Assembly (NCBI RefSeq): GCF_023973825.1
Contig: NC_090123.1
Span: forward strand, 1,471,501 to 1,535,500
Source: Plasmodium brasilianum
Lineage: Eukaryota > Apicomplexa > Aconoidasida > Haemosporida > Plasmodiidae
DNA length: 64,000 nt
Direction: 5' to 3'
In this document: positions 16,663 through 45,100 of the stretch, piece by piece
How positions within the stretch are numbered: the stretch's first letter is position 1
How the letters are laid out: each line of letters starts with the position of its first letter
The notes under the pieces: generated by a model
Databases searched by the model: none
Seen by the model: only the letters and a program-made list of their open reading frames with translations
What the model was told of the DNA's origin: nothing
Made by a program: the position numbers and the translations under genes

Positions 16663-17838
16663 ATGACAACGGCGGTCGAGGAAATTAATAGTTTGTTGAA
16701 TGAAAACGAGGATACACTAGTTAGTGAGTTACAAGGAAAGTATGACTTTATAAATTTTAACGAAATAAAGAATTACAAAGAGAAAAAATTTCATCATGAA
16801 TTAACATTAGAAATACAGAAATTTGTTAATAATAAAAATGTACATGTTAAGGATAAATTTCGTTTATTTTTTACATATTTATCTCCACTAATAAGTAAGT
16901 TGAAGAAGACTATATATGCAGAGTTGTTATACATGGTAACGGTTCAAATGGATACGACTTGGACAATAAACTATATAAAAGAAACAGAAAAAAATTTAGA
17001 AAATGATAAGGATGCTATTATAATATATAGGTGTATATTAATACTGAAATATATAGATGTAGGGGACTTTAAAAATTGTGAAGATGAAATAGAAAATACA
17101 AAAAATATGTTACAAGGGGTTATAGGACTAAATGTAGTAGCACATAAATTTTATAATTTTGCTTTAATGAATTATTATAAAATTTTAAATAAATCAGATC
17201 TGTATGTTAAGTATGCACTTTTATATTTAGCATATACACCATTAAACAATTTAGATGAAACGGAAATATTAGATATAGGTATATATATATGCATGCATTC
17301 AATAATTAGTGAGGATGTATACAATATAGGGGAAATTATACAATTACCACTTATAAATGTGTGCATAAAAAATAATGAACAAACGAATTGGCTCTATCAG
17401 CTAATATACATATATAATGAAGGTAATATTGATTCCTTTAATCAACTAGTACATAAATATGAAGCAAATATAAAAAATTCATTATTGAAAGAATATGAAA
17501 AAAGTATGTTCAAAAAAATTAGACTTCTAGCATTAATGGATCTGGCTTTTAAAAAAAAGAAACAAAGATCAGATATATCCTTTGTAGAGATTGCTGAACA
17601 TTGTAAAATTGATATAAAAGAAGTTGAGAAAATGTTAATTACAGCTAAAAGTAAAAATATATTAACATGTATAATTGATGAAATTGAACAATCTGTTAAA
17701 ATAACGTGGGTAAAACCTAGAGTTCTTAATGATGAAAAAATTTTTTTTATGAAAGAGAGCATAGATAAGTGGATTAGTCATTCTAAGAGCCTCCTTACCT
17801 ATATAGAGGACCTATCTGTAGAGTTGCTCATATCGTAG
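16663..17838 (+). CDS. RPN9: 26S proteasome lid subunit RPN9 (PSMD13)
   Basis: Non-ATPase subunit of the proteasome regulatory particle lid; it helps hold the lid together through its PCI domain. The single exon encodes 391 residues, the usual size of RPN9/PSMD13. The first ~270 residues are helical repeat-like (blocks HHELTLEIQKFV and KFYNFALMNYYKIL). Residues ~290-365 form the PCI winged helix, with the strongly family-like segment SFVEIAEHCKIDIKEVEKML followed by VKITWVKPRVL. A C-terminal helix follows. Unlike most neighbours it has no Asn-rich insertions. The start is the first ATG after in-frame stops, preceded by a relatively GC-rich leader. It points away from the gene on its left and towards the minus-strand Kae1 gene, from which it is separated by a minisatellite. 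Confidence 0.93.
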   Translation: MTTAVEEINSLLNENEDTLVSELQGKYDFINFNEIKNYKEKKFHHELTLEIQKFVNNKNVHVKDKFRLFFTYLSPLISKLKKTIYAELLYMVTVQMDTTWTINYIKETEKNLENDKDAIIIYRCILILKYIDVGDFKNCEDEIENTKNMLQGVIGLNVVAHKFYNFALMNYYKILNKSDLYVKYALLYLAYTPLNNLDETEILDIGIYICMHSIISEDVYNIGEIIQLPLINVCIKNNEQTNWLYQLIYIYNEGNIDSFNQLVHKYEANIKNSLLKEYEKSMFKKIRLLALMDLAFKKKKQRSDISFVEIAEHCKIDIKEVEKMLITAKSKNILTCIIDEIEQSVKITWVKPRVLNDEKIFFMKESIDKWISHSKSLLTYIEDLSVELLIS

Positions 17839-18825: not shown

Positions 18826-20621
18826 CTATCTCCACGTTACTAAAACGTCGTCCGTTCTATACCTTTGATGAATACTTATATTTTCAAAATTGTAGACAGT
18901 TTTATCTTTCGCGTGTAAATATTCTAGATAACCCGTATATGCAATCATAGCCCCATTGTCAACACAATAGCTATGATCCATAAATCCAATTTTAATATTT
19001 TTCTGTTTTGCCATTTTTTTCATCATATTTTGGAGAAACAAATTACATCCAACTCCTCCGACAATTATAACCTCTTTACTATTGGTGAACGAAATAGCTC
19101 GTTCAGTAATTTCAATGAGCATGCTAAATATATGATGTTGTAAACTGTAGCATATTTGAATTTTTCTTTTTTCCTCATCAGTTAAATTTATTACTTCTTT
19201 TTCCGCTTCTTTTAAATCTTTTTCGTAGAAATCGCTATCAGTCTCTATAGAACAGTCATCCGTTACGTACGTATCACCATCATCGTTACCTCCATAATTT
19301 TTTTTATTTTTGCTTTTATATATAATGTTATCTTCATAATACGAGTTTCCTTTCATTCCAGAATGGAGGCTTGAATTATAATGCAAGCATTTATGGGCAT
19401 CCTCTGAGAGGTCATTCGCTCCTCTACCCTTTTCTATATTTCCTCGTTTATCAGATTCTTTACATTCGTGTAATTCAGTTACATTTTTCATATCCTCCGA
19501 TTGATGCTCATCGCTGGTTTGTGTGTCTTCTCCACCTAATGCATTATTCTCGCTTTTGGCCTTCTTCTTAACATTTTGGTTTAATTTATCTGTTCCCCCT
19601 GCTCTATTTTTCATCCCGCCTCTTTCCTTTTTGTGGGCCTTTTTATTAGTGATATATTTTGCAAAGTACTTACTAATATAAAAGTCATATCCACTAAAGG
19701 ATATGTCCATACCTTTTATCGTATAAGGAAAGAATAGCAGTTCAGTGAAATCACACGTATCATCATAATTTTTTTTTTTTTTTTTTTTTTTTTTCTGAGC
19801 TCATTTGGTACATTCGACTGATTATTTTGCACATGTTGAACATCCGTAAGAATGCTTATGTCATCGTCCCATTTGCTATCTCCCGTGTTTTCCTTACCTG
19901 AATGAGAAGCAAATTCATCATGACTATGGTCATTATGTTTTGTATGATACCCGTTTATCTCTTTTGCATTATTATTAATCGTTTGCTTTTTCTTAATGTT
20001 AAGTAAATATTTTTGTCTAGCTAAAAGTTCAACATTATAACCAGGTGAAGGTGAGTTGGATATTTTAAGAATTCTAGCTGACCTGTCAATAACATTTCCT
20101 ATGGCAATATCTAAAGTCTCACCAATAATTTCATATCTTTTTTTATGATTATTATAATATATTATTTGTGTATTCCCACCACTTACATAAAGAATAATAG
20201 GATGGTATAGCTTCGTTATATATATACCCATTTCAATATGAGCAATACAATGATTTACCCCTATTACTGGTATATTAAAAAGTAGGGAAAAAATTTTACA
20301 TATATTGTAAGCTATATATAGTGCTGATCCTATACCTGGTCCTCTTGTATAACATATTAATGATATATCCCTTATATTTATACTTAATTTATTTAAACAA
20401 TTTTTTATCATATCTATTATATAGTATTTGTGATGTGCATTAATTTCTCTAGGTATAAATCCACATCCTATCTCAGATATATATGTTCTTCTCATATTTA
20501 CTAAAATTTTGTTTTCTTCATTTATTATGCTTACACCTAATTTATTGGCACTTCCTTCTATTCCTAACACATACTGTTTGCATCTCTTCTGCTGTACTCC
20601 TTTTTCTTTCTCTATCGCCAT
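18826..20621 (-). CDS. KAE1: KEOPS tRNA N6-adenosine threonylcarbamoyltransferase Kae1, frame broken at poly-A
   Basis: Catalytic subunit of the cytosolic KEOPS complex, which makes t6A37 in ANN-decoding tRNAs. The start is the ATG at 20619-20621. Visible signatures: ASKHA-fold start VLGIEGSANKLG; metal-binding HxxxH at H124/H128 (VNHCIAHIEMG); phosphate loop VSGGNTQ; GETLDIAIGN; and in the second half KGMDISFSG, IIVGGVGCN, CVDNGAMIAYTG and the eukaryotic ending QRYRTDDVLVTWR. The ending marks the cytosolic Kae1 type rather than the organellar Qri7 type. The reading frame is interrupted: at a 26-base A run (plus-strand T run 19769-19794) the first frame goes off into IMMIRV and stops at 19716. 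The conserved continuation (FFPYTIKGMDISFSG) lies in another frame. One extra A restores about 598 residues. A ~90-residue Asn/His/Asp-rich insertion before the run and another ~150-residue one after KAHKKE make it much longer than the ~335-residue family norm. Confidence 0.92.
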
Positions 20622-26202: not shown

Positions 26203-26892
26203 CTATAATGCTGCCATCATATAGACTGCAAGTATAACTAAAAGGCTGAACATGGACATTTCATTCATTACACTGTAGCCTGTACTTCCATTTTCACCAC
26301 TACCTTCACCACCGCTGCCCTCACCTCCGTCACCTTCACCTCCACTACCTGCTCCTCCATCATCTATCTTAGCACATTCATAAAATGTTCCTTGTAATTT
26401 GCATTCTTTATCTTCTTTACATTTCAGTGTACATTTGGTTTTTCCGGGTTTTTCACACTTTTTATTTTCATCATGTACTATGCCTACATGACAAGCACAT
26501 TTTGTAATATTTGCATTATAGGGGTCAACTATACATTTTCCTTGTCCACATACAACCTTATCACATATACTTGGAATACATTGATCATTTACTGGTATAT
26601 AGCCTCTGTTGCAGGTACATGCTAATTTCTTTGGGTCTGATGCTGATGAGATATTTGTGCATGTAGCATAGTGATCACAGAAATTATTTAAATGTTCAAT
26701 TTTTTCGCATTGTCCTTTTTTTTCACAAATACTTTCATATGTTAAAACAAATCCTTCATTGCACCGACATTCAAAATGGTTACTCATTTGAACTAAATCT
26801 CCATTTATGCATACTGTGGACTCATTGACTATTGCATTACTATATTTTATTACAAGTTGGATGAAAAATAAAAGAAATACACTGTAATTCAT
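26203..26892 (-). CDS. P28: Ookinete surface protein P28
   Basis: GPI-anchored zygote/ookinete surface antigen, partner of P25 in coating the parasite during mosquito midgut passage; a transmission-blocking vaccine target. The 229-aa protein has a signal peptide (residues 1-20, ending YSNA), four EGF-like modules with 20 cysteines, and the family landmark QMSNHFECRC. The last EGF module is incomplete, as is usual for P28. It is followed by a Gly/Ser/Glu tandem repeat (GSGGEG type, residues ~185-205) and a hydrophobic GPI-signal tail ending VILAVYMMAAL. The GSGGE-type repeat recalls Pvs28, while the AT content does not. It has a single exon and is co-oriented with P25, 2.1 kb away. P28 and P25 transcripts are known to be stored and translationally repressed in female gametocytes. 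The ATG at 26890-26892 directly precedes the signal peptide. Confidence 0.96.
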   Translation of the reverse strand: MNYSVFLLFFIQLVIKYSNAIVNESTVCINGDLVQMSNHFECRCNEGFVLTYESICEKKGQCEKIEHLNNFCDHYATCTNISSASDPKKLACTCNRGYIPVNDQCIPSICDKVVCGQGKCIVDPYNANITKCACHVGIVHDENKKCEKPGKTKCTLKCKEDKECKLQGTFYECAKIDDGGAGSGGEGDGGEGSGGEGSGENGSTGYSVMNEMSMFSLLVILAVYMMAAL

Positions 26893-29024: not shown

Positions 29025-29675
29025 TCAAATAATATATAAATAGGTTAAAGCTATAATGAAAATGATACTTAAATTTACAATGTTAAATACTGAATAGGCA
29101 GTACATATACCTTCTTCTTTATCAAAAGAAAAACCATCTTCACAGTCACATTTATAACGTCCTTCTACAACTTTGCAAGTTTCGTTGCTCTTTAAGCATT
29201 TTAATGTACATTTAGTTTCCCCATCTTTTGTACACATGTTTTTGTTATTTGGATCTGGAACTTTGCCTATATCACAAGAACATATGGCAGTTTTAACATC
29301 TTCATTATTTGGGTCTAAAATACATTTTCCTTTATCACAAGATACATTTTTACATACAGACGGAACACAAACATCTTTTACATTAGTATATCCTACAGCA
29401 CACATACAAGTATATTTATTTGGCGTGTTAGCCAAAACACATGTAGAAAAATCAGCACAAGGTTTAGATTTAGTTCCTTCTTTGCATTCTTGTTTCTGTT
29501 CACACACATCGTCCTTTACATGTACATGTCCATCATCACATACACACTCAAAATGATTGCTCATTTGAATCAGATACCCATTTTTACATACCGTGTCTAT
29601 GGTGACCTTTGCTTTATTATGTTTTATTGCAAGTTGCATTAAAAAGAAAAGAATCGCACTGTAATAGGTATTCAT
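29025..29675 (-). CDS. P25: Ookinete surface protein P25
   Basis: GPI-anchored ookinete surface protein and leading transmission-blocking vaccine antigen. The single exon encodes 216 residues, the family length. Signal peptide residues 1-22 (MNTYYSAILFFLMQLAIKH start). Four EGF-like modules contain 22 cysteines (11 disulfides), as in Pvs25, with landmarks QMSNHFECVCDDG, CMCAVGYT, CSCDIGKVPDP and CDCEDGFSFDKE. The tail after YSVFNIVN is hydrophobic and ends TYLYII, as expected for GPI attachment. The ATG at 29673-29675 is followed directly by the signal peptide. P25 and P28 are tandem paralogues on the same strand. A UGUAAAUU element follows the stop and a TGTACGTACA palindrome lies about 580 bases upstream, both plausible parts of female-gametocyte regulation. 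Confidence 0.97.
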   Translation of the reverse strand: MNTYYSAILFFLMQLAIKHNKAKVTIDTVCKNGYLIQMSNHFECVCDDGHVHVKDDVCEQKQECKEGTKSKPCADFSTCVLANTPNKYTCMCAVGYTNVKDVCVPSVCKNVSCDKGKCILDPNNEDVKTAICSCDIGKVPDPNNKNMCTKDGETKCTLKCLKSNETCKVVEGRYKCDCEDGFSFDKEEGICTAYSVFNIVNLSIIFIIALTYLYII

Positions 29676-37526: not shown

Positions 37527-39722
37527 ATGGCTACTTTTAAAAAATTATGTGAGGATACACTGAATGAAAAAGAAAGATATGTAGGTATTGAAACGGTATT
37601 AGAGAGAATATTTGACGAACTAATATTTGACTTTAAAAAAAAATTCATAGAAAAGATATCGACACTAATTGAGGAAGTAAAAGATAGTGCATCAATTTTC
37701 GAAATTGATAAAAAGGGATATGACTTAAAAGGTAATAAGGAAAATGAGGAGAAAAAAAAAAAAAAGGAGGAAAATTTATATAATGATAGTTCTCTAGGTG
37801 TGTACTTAAATGATTTTAAAGACAGTAATAAAAAAAGTTTATTGAAAAAAATTCAAAAAGAAATGGATGAACTTAAAATGGGAGAACGAAGGATGGATGA
37901 ACTTAAAATGGGAGAACGAAGGATGGATGAACGTAAAATGGGAGATCGAAGGATGGATGAACGTAAAACGAGTGAACGAAGGATGGATGAACTAAAAGTT
38001 GAAGAATTGCATAAAAAATGGAATAATGAAAATGATCTTGACGAGGATAAAATGGAATTTCTTCATTTGGTCAAGGGGAAAAGTGAAGATGGAAATTGGT
38101 CTAGTAAAAAGGTTTGTACAAATGGTTGTACAAATGGTTGTACAAAGGGTAGTATAAAGGGTAGTATAAAGGGTAGTATAAAGGACAGTAACATATATAA
38201 CTCGCGAAATGAATTTTCTGGTATATTAAGTAAAGAAATAAACAACAAGTCCGATAAATATAAAGGAGATAGCAATTTTTTAACTTTATTACCATCAAAT
38301 AATTATAATTATGAACAAACAAAAAAAAATTCAAATATTGATCAAAGCATAAATGAGTTTGTAATCTCTAGTAAGTTAAATAACAATGTAGAAGACTCAA
38401 ATACACCGAGTGATGAAAGTAAAAAAAATGATAGGGGGGATGTATATTCTAATATAATCAGCAAATACACTATGAAACGTCTTTTTTCGAATAGATTTTA
38501 CACAAAGGAGTATAACAGCGATGATCATGAGAATGCTGATCGAACGAATGTTGATCGAACGAATGTTGATCGAACGAATACTGATCTAACGAATGTTGAT
38601 CTCTATTCTGATAGGAATAGTGAGAAATTCCACAGCTCTTTTGTTAGTAAACTGGACAAGTATGGAATTGCGCGCAGTGAGAAGGGTGCAAAGGAGGGCA
38701 GCAAGAATGGAAAAAAGGATGATACGCATAGTGATGAACTTAACGATGAACGCAGTGATGAAGAGCAAGACGAATCTAACGGTAAGGAGGATAACCAAAA
38801 GGAGAAGATAAAAATCGCTTCAACCAATAAATCATACCGTATGAGAATCAATGATAAGGTAAATTCAGAAAGAGATCATGATCAAAGTTTGAAAGAAGGT
38901 GCTAAATCTAAGGCAAATTCTTTAAATTATGAAAAGGAAGATACCCAGAGTTTGTTATCAGCAGAATTAAATGAACGGAATAAAATTTTAAAAAATTACT
39001 CGCATGTTGAATTATTACCAAATAAGCGTAATACAAATGATATAAGAGAAAATGAAGAAAAAAAAAGTAAAGACTTATTTTTTGAAGTTATCAGGGGGAA
39101 AAGAAGAAAACATTTAAGGGGTTTCGATTGTGAAGATTGTAAATCATTTTATAATGAAATATATTCTGATAATTTAGAATATGAAAATTTTAAAAAAGGA
39201 GAAAAAAAAAAATATATAAATAAACCAAATATGATGGATCATATTACGAATATGCAAATGAATAAAAATTCTCTTAATGATATATTAATTAAGCATGAAC
39301 AAGTTAATAAAAAAGCAGAGGATAATATATATCAAAATTCTATCAAAAATTGTGAAAATAAAAAAGAATTAAATGAAAATGCCTTAATGGAAAATACTTT
39401 AAATGAAAAGTATGTTCATAACATTCAAAAGGACAGACATAAAACTTTTTTTAATTCTTCGTTACAATGTAGTTCAGACAGTTATAAGTATGTTGATAAA
39501 TATGCAATAAACAAAAAGAATTGTTATTACAATAATTTAGTTAAACCAAATGAAATACAGGAAGAAAAGTTTTACGAAATTGACGATGAACAGGAAGAAA
39601 AAATAGCGAAAAAAAAAGAAAATAAAAAAAATAAAATTATTCAGTCTTTTTCACGCCATAGGTATCATAGAAAAGTTAATGATTCTCCTCAAAATTTCTG
39701 GAGTTTCGATTTTTTTAAATAA
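37527..39722 (+). CDS. CtIP/Sae2/Ctp1-like DNA-end-resection factor
   Basis: 731-aa hydrophilic protein that would usually be called unknown. Its C-terminus carries the signature of the Sae2/CtIP/Ctp1/Com1 family, which stimulates the MRE11-RAD50 nuclease at DNA breaks. Residues 523-538 (RGKRRKHLRGFDCEDC, then KSFY) match the basic-Gly-CxxC-xxFY block. The last 23 residues contain SRHRY (709-713) and DSPQNFWSFDFF (719-730), matching the SRHR...(S/T)P.(N/G)FW...F ending. Ser720-Pro is at the position of the CDK site in Sae2/CtIP. The N-terminus (residues ~3-50) is a helical segment suited to the family's oligomerisation coiled coil. Oddities: 171 residues separate CxxC from SRHR, against a few tens in other species. 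There are also internal tandem repeats (MDELKMGERR-like, 37863-38010; CTNG/SIKG; DRTNV). Start: first ATG after TTG-led codons (MATFKKLCEDTLNEKE). The middle is Asn/Lys/Asp-rich filler. Confidence 0.78.
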   Translation: MATFKKLCEDTLNEKERYVGIETVLERIFDELIFDFKKKFIEKISTLIEEVKDSASIFEIDKKGYDLKGNKENEEKKKKKEENLYNDSSLGVYLNDFKDSNKKSLLKKIQKEMDELKMGERRMDELKMGERRMDERKMGDRRMDERKTSERRMDELKVEELHKKWNNENDLDEDKMEFLHLVKGKSEDGNWSSKKVCTNGCTNGCTKGSIKGSIKGSIKDSNIYNSRNEFSGILSKEINNKSDKYKGDSNFLTLLPSNNYNYEQTKKNSNIDQSINEFVISSKLNNNVEDSNTPSDESKKNDRGDVYSNIISKYTMKRLFSNRFYTKEYNSDDHENADRTNVDRTNVDRTNTDLTNVDLYSDRNSEKFHSSFVSKLDKYGIARSEKGAKEGSKNGKKDDTHSDELNDERSDEEQDESNGKEDNQKEKIKIASTNKSYRMRINDKVNSERDHDQSLKEGAKSKANSLNYEKEDTQSLLSAELNERNKILKNYSHVELLPNKRNTNDIRENEEKKSKDLFFEVIRGKRRKHLRGFDCEDCKSFYNEIYSDNLEYENFKKGEKKKYINKPNMMDHITNMQMNKNSLNDILIKHEQVNKKAEDNIYQNSIKNCENKKELNENALMENTLNEKYVHNIQKDRHKTFFNSSLQCSSDSYKYVDKYAINKKNCYYNNLVKPNEIQEEKFYEIDDEQEEKIAKKKENKKNKIIQSFSRHRYHRKVNDSPQNFWSFDFFK

Positions 39723-42100: not shown

Positions 42101-45100
42101 TCATTCATTCATTCATTCATTCATTCATTTTTATCTCTTTTTTTCTATCAATTAACATAGATAAATGATTATCATGACAGTAATTTTAAAAAAAATTTTT
42201 ATATAAAAAGCATAAGAACAGATGGAAACTGTTTATTTAGAGCAGTTTCGGATCAGTTATATAACTACGAGGAGAACTATAAAGAAATTAGAAAACGAGT
42301 GGTTAGTTGTCTTTCTTTGTTTGAAGTGCGATTTTTGCGCCGTTAATTAATTTGGTTTTTTGCTTCATGTTTGTTTGTATACCTTCGTGTTTACTTGTCT
42401 GCATGTGTGCATATGTACCTGTTTGTTTGTCTTCATGTCTGACTGTATGCTTGTCTGTATGACTGTATTTATGACCTATTACGCACGCGATATGGAAAGT
42501 GGCAGGTTTTATAATTAACAAGAAGGACATACATGCTTATATTTTTATGCCCCCTTTTTTTTCTTTTTTTTTTTTTTTTTTTCTTTCCAGGTTGAACATT
42601 TATTAAAAAACGAAGAAAAGTATAAGAATTTCTTGGAATATGATGAAAGCTTTAAATCTTATATAGAAAGGTAAGCTATTAAAATTTGTGGAAGATCGGT
42701 GTAAGTATCATTTTATATACATTCCCGTTGTGTGCTTCCATATAATTTGCCTGTATGTAGATATACAGACATCCTATTGTGTGTGTATATATGTGCATAT
42801 ATAAATATATATGTTTCTTGACCCTTGTTATTGCATGTGTTCATTTACTGTGTGTGTTATTCTTTTTTAAGAATAAGCCTGGATGGTACATGGGGAGGGC
42901 AGTTAGAACTTCAAGCCGTGGGAGAATTATTCAAAGTAAACAAATAGAAAGATACAAAAAATTAAGTATGAACCGTCAAATGTTATGCATATAACGTAAA
43001 GTTTGAAGCAATAAAAATGAATGTTAATTTTTTTTTTTTTTTTTTTTTTTTATTTATTTATTTTTTGTGAACTGTAATAACATGTATGATTTATTCCTTT
43101 TATATCTCTTCACTAATGAGTTATTTTTTTATTCCCTGCATTATCTACCCACTCCTCATCTGTATTTCACTGTATGACATATGAAAAAATGTAATAATAA
43201 TGAACAAAATTAATATATATGTGATTACCTTTTGTATATGAACAGGTTAATATATTAATATACCAGGAAAATGGGTGCATCCTAGAAATAAAAAATCATA
43301 GCGATGACAACAAGTGCATACAGTTACACTATGCCTCTAGCGTATGTCTTTTTTTCTTTTTTTTCTTTTTAATATATACATATGGAATTGTATACGTGCC
43401 AAATTTTTATCTATAAGATGTTGAAGGTGGTTTTTTCCCCCCTATTCATGCTTTTCCATTCGTTATTCATTTCACCGTACTCCGTTAACTGTTAACCGAG
43501 CTGTTCATTTCTTTTATCTTTTTTTTTTTTTTTTTTCCTCTTAATGGCTTCCTTATTTTGACTGTATATTTTTTCCGTCATACAAATTTTCAGGAGCATT
43601 ATAACAGTGTGAGGTTCAAGAACAGGGCTCTAGAAAATGAACTCAAGTGTATATTAGACTTAAGAGAAATAGTAATTATAAAAAATAAAAAATTACTACA
43701 AAATTTGCACGATGTTTATGCGCCTATGCATACACGTGTTTGTATATCTTCATGAATGTAGACATATACACCCTACATATGTTCCGTCTTTATGTTGAGT
43801 TAATACCATATTAAATAGTAGATGCATTTTTTTGATAAACGCTCTGATAATGTCATTACATATGATATAATTTTTAGATGAAGAGAAAATTTTTTTTTTT
43901 TTTTGTAATTTGTATTATGAGTGCGTTTTTATAAAACTGTGCGTATAAGTAGCTCCAATCTGCACGGTGTGTAATTAGGTTTATTTGGAAAGTTTATTAC
44001 ATATATGCGTATGTATGTATGTATGTACATGTATGTATATATATGTGTGTATATATATGTGTGTATATATACTCATATATATGTATATGTGATTTCCTTT
44101 TCTGCCTGATCGTGCGTGCACACAGCTGAACGACAAGGACGAGAACGATTCGACGAAAACTTTCTATGAGACGACGGAAAACGAGCTAACGGATGAGAAT
44201 GAGGATTGCAGTTCAAGTCATATAAAAGAGAACAGGAAAATGAATGATAGTTTAGGGGATAAATCAAATTGCTTTAGTAGATTAATGGAGGAACAATATG
44301 GATTAGGTGAATATATAAATGATAAGGATGAACCATATATTTTTTTTGTAAGTGAGGATGAGAATACACCAAATGCTTTTGATATATTACAAAGTATTAG
44401 TAATGGGATAAGACGTAAAAAAGCAAGGAGTAGGAGTATGCCAGGGATTAATGAAAAATTTCTTTATTTTTTTTCGAAAAATCAACTAAATGAAAAAATA
44501 GAAAGTGATAGTACAATTGATAACTTAAATGAAAAGAAAAATATAGAAAAAAAAAAGCAAAAAAAAAATGAAAAAAGGAAAATTAATTTTCTCAAATGCA
44601 ATTATATAGGACACGAAAATGAAGATATTTTGAATGAGTATTTGTCTAGCATTGGTAATAATAGCAGTGATTTGGGGAAGGCTACTATTCGTATATGTTA
44701 TAATAAAACATTCCACAAGTATTTGCGCTTATCCAAAATGATGGGGGAAATTGAGGGGGAACCAGAGGGGAGACTTGCCGTGGAGGATAACAACCAGGTT
44801 AGGCACAACACCCAGGTTAGGAAGAACAATCGAGTTAAGCAGAATGACCAAGTGGAAAGGAACAATCAGCTGGATGAGATTCATGAGGGGGATGATACAA
44901 ATGACAGGGTTGAGTTGGAGAATGAGAAATACCGTAATAAGGGAAATACCAATTTATGGCATAATGATAATTGCGCTATGCAAACATGTTCAAATGGAAT
45001 CAGCATGGTTAACAATCAATATGAAGATAAGGAAAACAGAAAGAGTAATACTTCAAATGCACAAAAAGACAACAACAGTAGTAGTACTAATAGCAGTAGT

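What the first reader, a model, noticed from the sequence alone, without database searches (positions are those of the whole stretch)
37527..39722. A CtIP/Sae2/Ctp1-type resection factor in a malaria parasite
Most of this 731-aa protein is filler, but its end carries the family signature in the right order: RGKRRKHLRGFDCEDC-KSFY at 523-542, then SRHRY at 709-713 and DSPQNFWSFDFF at 719-730. Human CtIP and yeast Sae2/Ctp1 end in the same SRHR...(S/T)P.xFW...F arrangement after a CxxC block. Sae2/CtIP activates MRE11-RAD50 endonuclease at breaks. Plasmodium lacks classical NHEJ, so such a factor would be central to repair and perhaps to schizogony or meiosis. I am not aware of it being described.
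Basis: partly seen in the sequence, partly recalled or inferred. Interest (0 to 1): 0.85.

Follow-up and report, generated by a model that had tools for sequence, protein, structure and literature searches.

The report
Malaria parasite CtIP/Sae2-type DNA-break repair protein
This gene very probably encodes the malaria parasite's version of CtIP/Sae2, the protein that in yeast and humans switches on the Mre11-Rad50 nuclease at broken DNA; databases already flag the domain, but its function appears unstudied, and its key domain is split by a long insert and lacks one residue expected to bind zinc.

Summary
The 731-residue frame (37527-39722, +) carries C535-x2-C538, SRHR at 709-712 and DSPQNFW at 719-725. 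Pfam SAE2/CtIP (PF08573) matches at E 8.1e-8, 33.7 bits, cut-off 19.8. The window protein and the 10 Plasmodium orthologues recovered all match (11 of 11) and keep C535, C538, SRHR, H714 and DSPxNFW. It is the only SAE2 locus found in its genome, which also encodes Mre11 and a Rad50-like protein; Ku and Nbs1_C gave no match.

Most likely it is the parasite's CDK-gated activator of Mre11-Rad50 end clipping. Function is inferred, not shown. Placing R712 on human R839 puts S720 on the phosphosite T847.

Three features differ from human CtIP: 147-205 residues separate CxxC from SRHR; zinc ligand C835 is Phe or Tyr in 11 of 11, with an invariant His (H714) nearby; the chain ends before T859.

It is not wholly undescribed: UniRef names for 9 of 10 orthologues begin 'DNA endonu...', and a 2024 paper calls PF3D7_1031300, by synteny the orthologue, an SAE2-domain repair protein. 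New member of a known kind.

The parts
37527..39722 (+). coding sequence, 731 aa, probably single-exon, SAE2/CtIP/Ctp1 family
   Evidence: translation; Pfam PF08573; 10 Plasmodium orthologues, with the N-terminal Met aligned in 11 of 11
37584..37679 (+). residues 20-51, conserved N-terminal helix, proposed oligomerisation module
   Evidence: mean pairwise identity 0.68 against 0.35 overall; AlphaFold helix 21-56, pLDDT 73-82 for residues 21-50; no relevant match to a solved structure
37785..37868 (+). residues 87-114, second conserved block (LGVYL...KKSL), start of a predicted long helix
   Evidence: identity 0.54; helix 99-167 in the model
37861..37997 (+). in-frame 15/30-bp tandem repeat (MDELKMGERR-type), variable between species
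   Evidence: mostly gaps or different letters in the orthologues
38439..38498 (+). residues 305-324, conserved SNIISKYTxKRLFSNR block of unknown role, weak in the two avian species
   Evidence: identity 0.63; alignment
39069..39161 (+). residues 515-545, LFFEVIRGKRRKHLxGFxCxDCKSFY: first half of the SAE2 domain; C535 at 39129-39131, C538 at 39138-39140
   Evidence: profile 2-45, 18.1 bits alone; identity 0.85
39162..39614 (+). residues 546-696, low-conservation insert splitting the SAE2 domain
   Evidence: identity 0.28; C538-to-SRHR distance 147-205 residues in 11 of 11
39615..39719 (+). residues 697-731, second half of the SAE2 domain: SRHR (39651-39662), H714 (39666-39668), S720-P721 (39684-39689), NFWSFDFFK end
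   Evidence: profile 64-105, 41.4 bits for residues 683-731 alone; identity 0.85

Best explanation
The gene encodes the Plasmodium member of the CtIP/Sae2/Ctp1 family, the co-factor that switches on the Mre11-Rad50 endonuclease. Proposed mechanism: (1) the conserved N-terminal helices assemble the protein into an oligomer (inferred); (2) the long middle, modelled with low confidence and so probably disordered, spaces out the C-terminal domains (inferred); (3) the CxxC and SRHR halves come together to bind DNA at or near a break (inferred from human CtIP and fission-yeast Ctp1); (4) S720, in S-P context, is phosphorylated by a CDK-type kinase when the parasite replicates or enters meiosis (inferred from exact register with human T847); (5) the phosphorylated tail contacts Mre11-Rad50, and Mre11 nicks the 5' strand next to the break or next to covalently bound Spo11, committing the end to Rad51/Dmc1 recombination or, failing that, microhomology joining (inferred). 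Shown here: the conserved motifs and their order, family membership by profile, one SAE2 locus found in the genome, presence of Mre11 and of a Rad50-like protein, and no match for Ku or Nbs1_C at the sensitivity used.
For: PF08573 at 33.7 bits, cut-off 19.8; 41.4 bits for the tail alone; 11 of 11 proteins match; 0 of 3 shuffled or reversed controls match. C535, C538, S709-R712, H714, N718-P721, N723-W725 and F727-K731 are invariant in 11 of 11. Register: human RHR is R837-R839, and T847 and T859 are phosphosites important for CtIP function (PMC6344080 passages); R839 to T847 is 8 residues and R712 to S720 is 8 residues. C813/C816 spacing equals C535/C538 (PMC11317151 passages). Partners in the same genome: Mre11 (L002; TIGR00583 E 2.1e-65, 221 bits against a cut-off of 435) and a Rad50-like protein (L004; TIGR00606 E 4.5e-46, 157 bits against 454), both scored on partial frames; L004 also matches solved RAD50 chains. 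Rad51-family and Spo11/TopoVIA-type (TP6A_N) matches are present. P. falciparum Mre11 interacts with PfRad50 and its nuclease domain complements yeast Mre11 nuclease function (PMC4418825 passages). Alveolate precedent: Tetrahymena COM1/SAE2 acts in meiotic break processing (PMC8282021 passages).
Against: No functional, interaction or expression data. The CxxC piece alone is below the Pfam cut-off (18.1 bits, E 0.0059), with two unrelated families close behind, and in the whole-protein match HMMER lays the first half of the profile on the insert (635-729 to profile 10-105), not on CxxC. The third zinc ligand of human CtIP is missing in 11 of 11. The N-terminal helix shows no sequence-level similarity to any solved chain, although CtIP and Ctp1 N-terminal structures exist, and the structure model is poor overall (mean pLDDT 42). 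Human CtIP activation goes through NBS1 (PMC7260605 passages), for which no counterpart was detected here. Orthologues from P. falciparum or outside Plasmodium were not recovered.
Confidence: 0.8

Rival explanations
1. The protein is a true family descendant, but in Plasmodium it works mainly as a DNA-binding and end-bridging scaffold and no longer triggers Mre11.
For: Nbs1 is not detected (neither search had a good positive control), and NBS1 is reported to sense CtIP phosphorylation and activate human MRE11 (PMC7260605 passages). The zinc site is altered in 11 of 11 and the domain is split by 147-205 residues.
Against: The tail that carries the S-P site and NFW motif is, with the CxxC block, the most conserved of the stretches measured (0.85 identity against 0.35 overall), which fits kept nuclease activation. 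In budding yeast phosphorylated Sae2 contacts Rad50 directly; the Xrs2 FHA link is described as partially dispensable (PMC7260605 passages) or unimportant for resection initiation (PMC6315862 passages).
Confidence: 0.12
2. The SAE2-like tail was captured by an unrelated Plasmodium protein and serves another nuclear role, for example at telomeres or in transcription.
For: The middle of the protein has no family match above cut-off, and 305-324 is a conserved block without a known family.
Against: The overall layout (conserved helical N terminus, poorly conserved middle, C-terminal SAE2 motif) is that of CtIP/Ctp1 (PMC8205527, PMC6315862 passages), and this is the only SAE2 locus detected in a genome with Mre11 and a Rad50-like protein.
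Confidence: 0.06
3. Chance or composition-driven resemblance in a Lys/Asn/Glu-rich protein.
For: Low complexity and tandem repeats in the frame; weak matches to unrelated families for the CxxC piece.
Against: 0 of 3 shuffled or reversed controls match SAE2; motifs invariant in 11 proteins whose middle regions share only 20-30% identity.
Confidence: 0.01

Closest known systems
Human CtIP (RBBP8), C-terminal Sae2-like domain
   Same: CxxC spacing; RHR motif; phospho-T847 position aligned on S720 with identical 8-residue spacing; helical conserved N terminus and a long middle without recognised fold
   Different: C816 to H838 is 22 residues in human and C538 to H711 is 173 here; ligand C835 is Phe/Tyr in 11 of 11; the chain ends at 731, so there is no T859 equivalent (would be 732); no conserved Cys pair like the N-terminal C89/C92 zinc hinge among the invariant columns
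Schizosaccharomyces pombe Ctp1 and Saccharomyces cerevisiae Sae2
   Same: C-terminal DNA-binding RHR/RNR motif, and in Sae2 a critical CDK site; phosphorylated Sae2 binds Rad50 directly, as would be needed in a parasite without visible Nbs1 (PMC6315862, PMC7260605 passages)
   Different: Ctp1 is held at breaks by Nbs1, and no Nbs1_C match was found here; Sae2 lacks the CxxC pair (recalled)
Alveolate relatives: Tetrahymena COM1/SAE2, a Paramecium orthologue, a dinoflagellate CtIP candidate
   Same: family members reported in the wider group; Tetrahymena COM1 acts in meiotic break processing (PMC8282021 passages); Paramecium known here only as a cited title (Godau 2019, in PMC11317151); Symbiodinium candidate at 3e-6 in a table (PMC6680887 passages)
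   Different: sequences could not be compared here
PF3D7_1031300, P. [quoted passage not shown]
   Same: probably the orthologue: P25/P28-type pair and a MORN gene are the neighbours here, and P. falciparum MORN1 is PF10_0306 (PMC4760376 passages)
   Different: its sequence was not recovered in the protein searches, so orthology rests on synteny with recalled gene numbers and on the paper's domain name

Membership tests
SAE2/CtIP/Ctp1 (PF08573) | Profile match above the curated cut-off | tested here: met
   33.7 bits against 19.8; 11 of 11 proteins match at E<=0.001
SAE2/CtIP/Ctp1 (PF08573) | C-terminal RHR motif followed by S/T-P and FW | tested here: met
   SRHR, DSP, NFW invariant in 11 of 11; spacing R to S/T-P same as human
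SAE2/CtIP/Ctp1 (PF08573) | CxxC block upstream of RHR | tested here: met
   C535/C538 invariant in 11 of 11; block alone 18.1 bits, below the cut-off, right profile position; distance to RHR far longer than in human
CtIP-type C3H1 zinc site (C813, C816, C835, H838) | All four ligands present | tested here: not met
   C535, C538, H711 present; the C835 position is F708 (Phe in 9, Tyr in 2 of 11). H714, invariant, is a possible substitute. In human CtIP the site itself is only proposed from mass data (PMC11317151 passages)
SAE2/CtIP/Ctp1 (PF08573) | N-terminal tetramerisation helix | tested here: inconclusive
   conserved predicted helix 21-56; no match to solved chains; oligomeric state not testable
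SAE2/CtIP/Ctp1 (PF08573) | Phosphorylation-dependent stimulation of Mre11-Rad50 endonuclease | not testable with these tools
   partners present in the genome
SAE2/CtIP/Ctp1 (PF08573) | Interaction with Nbs1/Xrs2 FHA-BRCT | tested here: inconclusive
   presence of Nbs1 only: Nbs1_C no match (its one control match was an archaeon below the cut-off) and NIBRIN_BRCT_II no match (rang in no control genome). Papers report no NBS1 in Plasmodium (PMC7761864, PMC4418825 passages)

The most novel reading that the evidence does not exclude
Plasmodium runs a pared-down resection switch: Mre11-Rad50 plus a CtIP gated by CDK alone, without Nbs1 and without the T859-type tail, in which the CtIP zinc/DNA-binding domain has been rebuilt. 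Its CxxC half and SRHR half are held apart by 147-205 poorly conserved residues, and the C3H1 zinc site is replaced by C2H2 using SRHRxH.
Probability: 0.35. Interest if true: 0.65.

Novelty: new member of a known kind. Interest (0 to 1): 0.45.

Why it matters
Plasmodium lacks classical end joining (PMC6635534 passages), so how a break is processed rests on recombination and alternative joining. I found no studied activator of the first resection step in malaria parasites, and two Toxoplasma papers, the second resting on the first, list CtIP as missing there (PMC4853372, PMC7325978 passages). A named, conserved candidate with a mapped likely phosphosite makes that step testable, and the published need for MRE11 in parasite transmission (PMC7761864 title and passages) gives a clear prediction. 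It would also show how Mre11-Rad50 is licensed where Nbs1 is not visible.

Tried and rejected
Chance resemblance: set aside on controls and orthologue conservation. No fold comparison was made: the AlphaFold model has mean pLDDT 42 and pTM 0.19, so matches would mean little. Searches of solved structures with the protein, the 11-row alignment, the tail and a 7-row tail alignment gave nothing relevant: 0, 1 (E 0.18), 0 and 2 (E 0.71 and 0.93) matches. NCBIfam: 0 families for the protein. Nbs1 by two Pfam models: no match, without a good positive control in either; the controls are all prokaryotes, so the SAE2 and Mre11 models rang in none of them either. Rad50 zinc hook: one marginal match (24.4 bits, cut-off 24.3) on another contig from the Rad50-like head (C9 against C11), not followed. 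A third protein search aimed at longer relatives (Laverania, Toxoplasma) returned nothing at E<=1 among 2053 candidates. Since PF3D7_1031300 is in print, this, and the absence of P. falciparum, speaks of the search and not of the species. Literature: 10 of 10 searches used; bear on whether the Plasmodium protein is described. The identifiers other than PF3D7_1031300 were guesses from memory. Of the 15 papers opened (passages only in each), PMC11237754 alone speaks of this gene. The 2014 review of Plasmodium repair, the Paramecium CtIP paper, the Ctp1-peptide paper and a CtIP/Ctp1/Sae2 review are not held.

Full report
What is there. The frame at 37527-39722 on the + strand gives a 731-residue protein. 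It starts at an ATG whose N terminus (MATFK) is shared with five of the ten orthologues, and the starting Met aligns in 11 of 11, so a single-exon gene is likely. The window lies in a 31.4-Mb assembly of 43 contigs. The organism is a Plasmodium by its P25/P28-type genes (Pvs28 EGF domain) and by the orthologues. The closest orthologue recovered is from P. ovale curtisi at 45% identity, so the species itself is not among the ones found.

Is it an SAE2 protein? Pfam PF08573 matches at E 8.1e-8 and 33.7 bits, cut-off 19.8. Cut into pieces, the last 49 residues score 41.4 bits on profile positions 64-105. The 67-residue CxxC piece scores 18.1 bits (E 0.0059) on positions 2-45, slightly below the cut-off, with DUF5816 (E 0.011) and TMEM252 (E 0.031) close behind. 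In the whole protein HMMER lays profile 10-105 on residues 635-729, that is, partly on the insert and not on CxxC. The family call therefore rests mainly on the tail, and the CxxC block on its conservation and order. Two shuffles and the reversed sequence give no SAE2 match, 0 of 3. Ten orthologues were recovered, and all 11 proteins, the window's included, match PF08573 at E<=0.001. A search of the whole genome in six frames finds one SAE2 locus, this one.

Conservation. Across the 11 proteins mean pairwise identity is 0.35 over the whole length, 0.85 in residues 515-545, 0.85 in 697-731, 0.68 in 20-51, 0.54 in 87-114, 0.63 in 305-324, and only 0.28 in 546-696. C535, C538, S709-R712, H714, N718-P721, N723-W725 and F727-K731 are invariant. 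This is the pattern of CtIP and Ctp1: conserved ends, disordered middle (PMC6315862, PMC8205527, passages).

Register with human CtIP. Human RHR is R837-R839, and T847 and T859 are phosphosites important for function (PMC6344080 passages); the proposed zinc ligands are C813, C816, C835 and H838 (PMC11317151 passages). Setting R712 on R839 puts S720 on T847, in S-P context, and C535/C538 show the spacing of C813/C816. Three things differ. First, C816 to H838 is 22 residues in human and C538 to H711 is 173 here; the C538-to-SRHR stretch is 147-205 residues in 11 of 11. Second, C835 falls on F708, which is Phe in 9 and Tyr in 2 of 11; H714 is invariant and could serve as the fourth ligand. That is a hypothesis. 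Third, T859 would fall on residue 732, one beyond the end; all 11 chains end six residues after the NFW.

Partners and pathway. The same genome has Mre11 and a Rad50-like protein, whose first 400 or so residues match TIGR00606 and solved RAD50 chains. Rad51-family and Spo11/TopoVIA-type matches are present. Ku gives no match, with one control genome ringing. Nbs1_C gives none, its only control match being an archaeon below the cut-off, and NIBRIN_BRCT_II gives none but rang nowhere. The absence of Nbs1 thus rests largely on papers (PMC4418825, PMC7761864, passages). P. falciparum Mre11 interacts with PfRad50, and MRE11 is reported as crucial for parasite transmission (PMC7761864: title and start of abstract, passages; that the species was P. 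berghei is recalled).

How it most likely works. By analogy with CtIP, Ctp1 and Sae2, the protein forms an oligomer through its N-terminal helix, binds DNA with its split C-terminal domain and, once S720 is phosphorylated, makes Mre11-Rad50 nick the 5' strand near a blocked or broken end. In budding yeast the phosphorylated Sae2 C-terminal domain binds Rad50 directly, and the Xrs2 FHA link is partially dispensable or unimportant for resection initiation (PMC7260605, PMC6315862, passages). That is the closest model for a parasite in which Nbs1 is not visible. The AlphaFold model gives moderate confidence mainly to the helices 21-56 and 99-167 and is otherwise poor.

What is known. UniRef names for 9 of the 10 orthologues begin 'DNA endonu...' (cut in the listing; 'Ctp1 C' is visible in two), while NCBI names call them uncharacterized, hypothetical or of unknown function. 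One paper names PF3D7_1031300 an SAE2-domain double-strand-break repair protein among HDAC1 targets under drug stress (PMC11237754 passages). The link to this gene is synteny: two P25/P28-type genes, a MORN-repeat gene as the next large frame upstream and an OTU protease exon downstream surround it here, and MORN1 is PF10_0306 (PMC4760376 passages). The matching PF3D7 numbers of the neighbours are recalled. Two Toxoplasma papers list CtIP as missing there, the second citing the first (PMC4853372, PMC7325978, passages); the first notes an annotated TGVEG_252280 without BLASTP support. No study of the protein's function was found in the searches, which cover one open-licence library only.

Verdict. 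It is a new member of a known kind whose domain was already flagged by automatic annotation. The insert, the missing zinc ligand and the apparent lack of Nbs1 are the parts that could surprise a specialist.

Noticed in passing
18826-20621 (-): A TsaD/Kae1-type gene spread over two frames: the N-terminal part (19716-20621) and the C-terminal part (18826-19710) match PF00814 at successive profile positions. An intron, low-complexity insert or assembly frameshift could explain it.
   Followed up: partly
26203-26892 (-) and 29025-29675 (-): Two neighbouring P25/P28-type surface protein genes (Pvs28 EGF domain), used here as synteny anchors.
   Followed up: partly
38439-38498 (+): Residues 305-324 (SNIISKYTxKRLFSNR) form a conserved block of no known family in nine of the 11 proteins and degrade in the two avian Plasmodium (P0006, P0010).
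   Followed up: no
P0002-P0005 and P0008 (vivax-group orthologues), start of the insert: Four of five vivax-group proteins have a Cys-x-x-His (such as CNRH or CSRH) whose Cys lies 27 residues after CxxC; P. knowlesi P0008 has Trp in place of the Cys. Possibly an alternative zinc-ligand pair in that clade.
   Followed up: no
L016 (G000 C9:967403-967504): The only Rad50 zinc-hook match in the genome (24.4 bits, cut-off 24.3) is not on the contig of the Rad50-like head (C11), so the true hook may have diverged.
   Followed up: no
42161-42343 (+): Start of an OTU-type cysteine protease match downstream (PF02338, E 1.9e-5), probably one exon of several.
   Followed up: no
16663-17838 (+): Proteasome lid subunit of the PSD13/Rpn9 type (PF22037 and PCI).
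   Followed up: no
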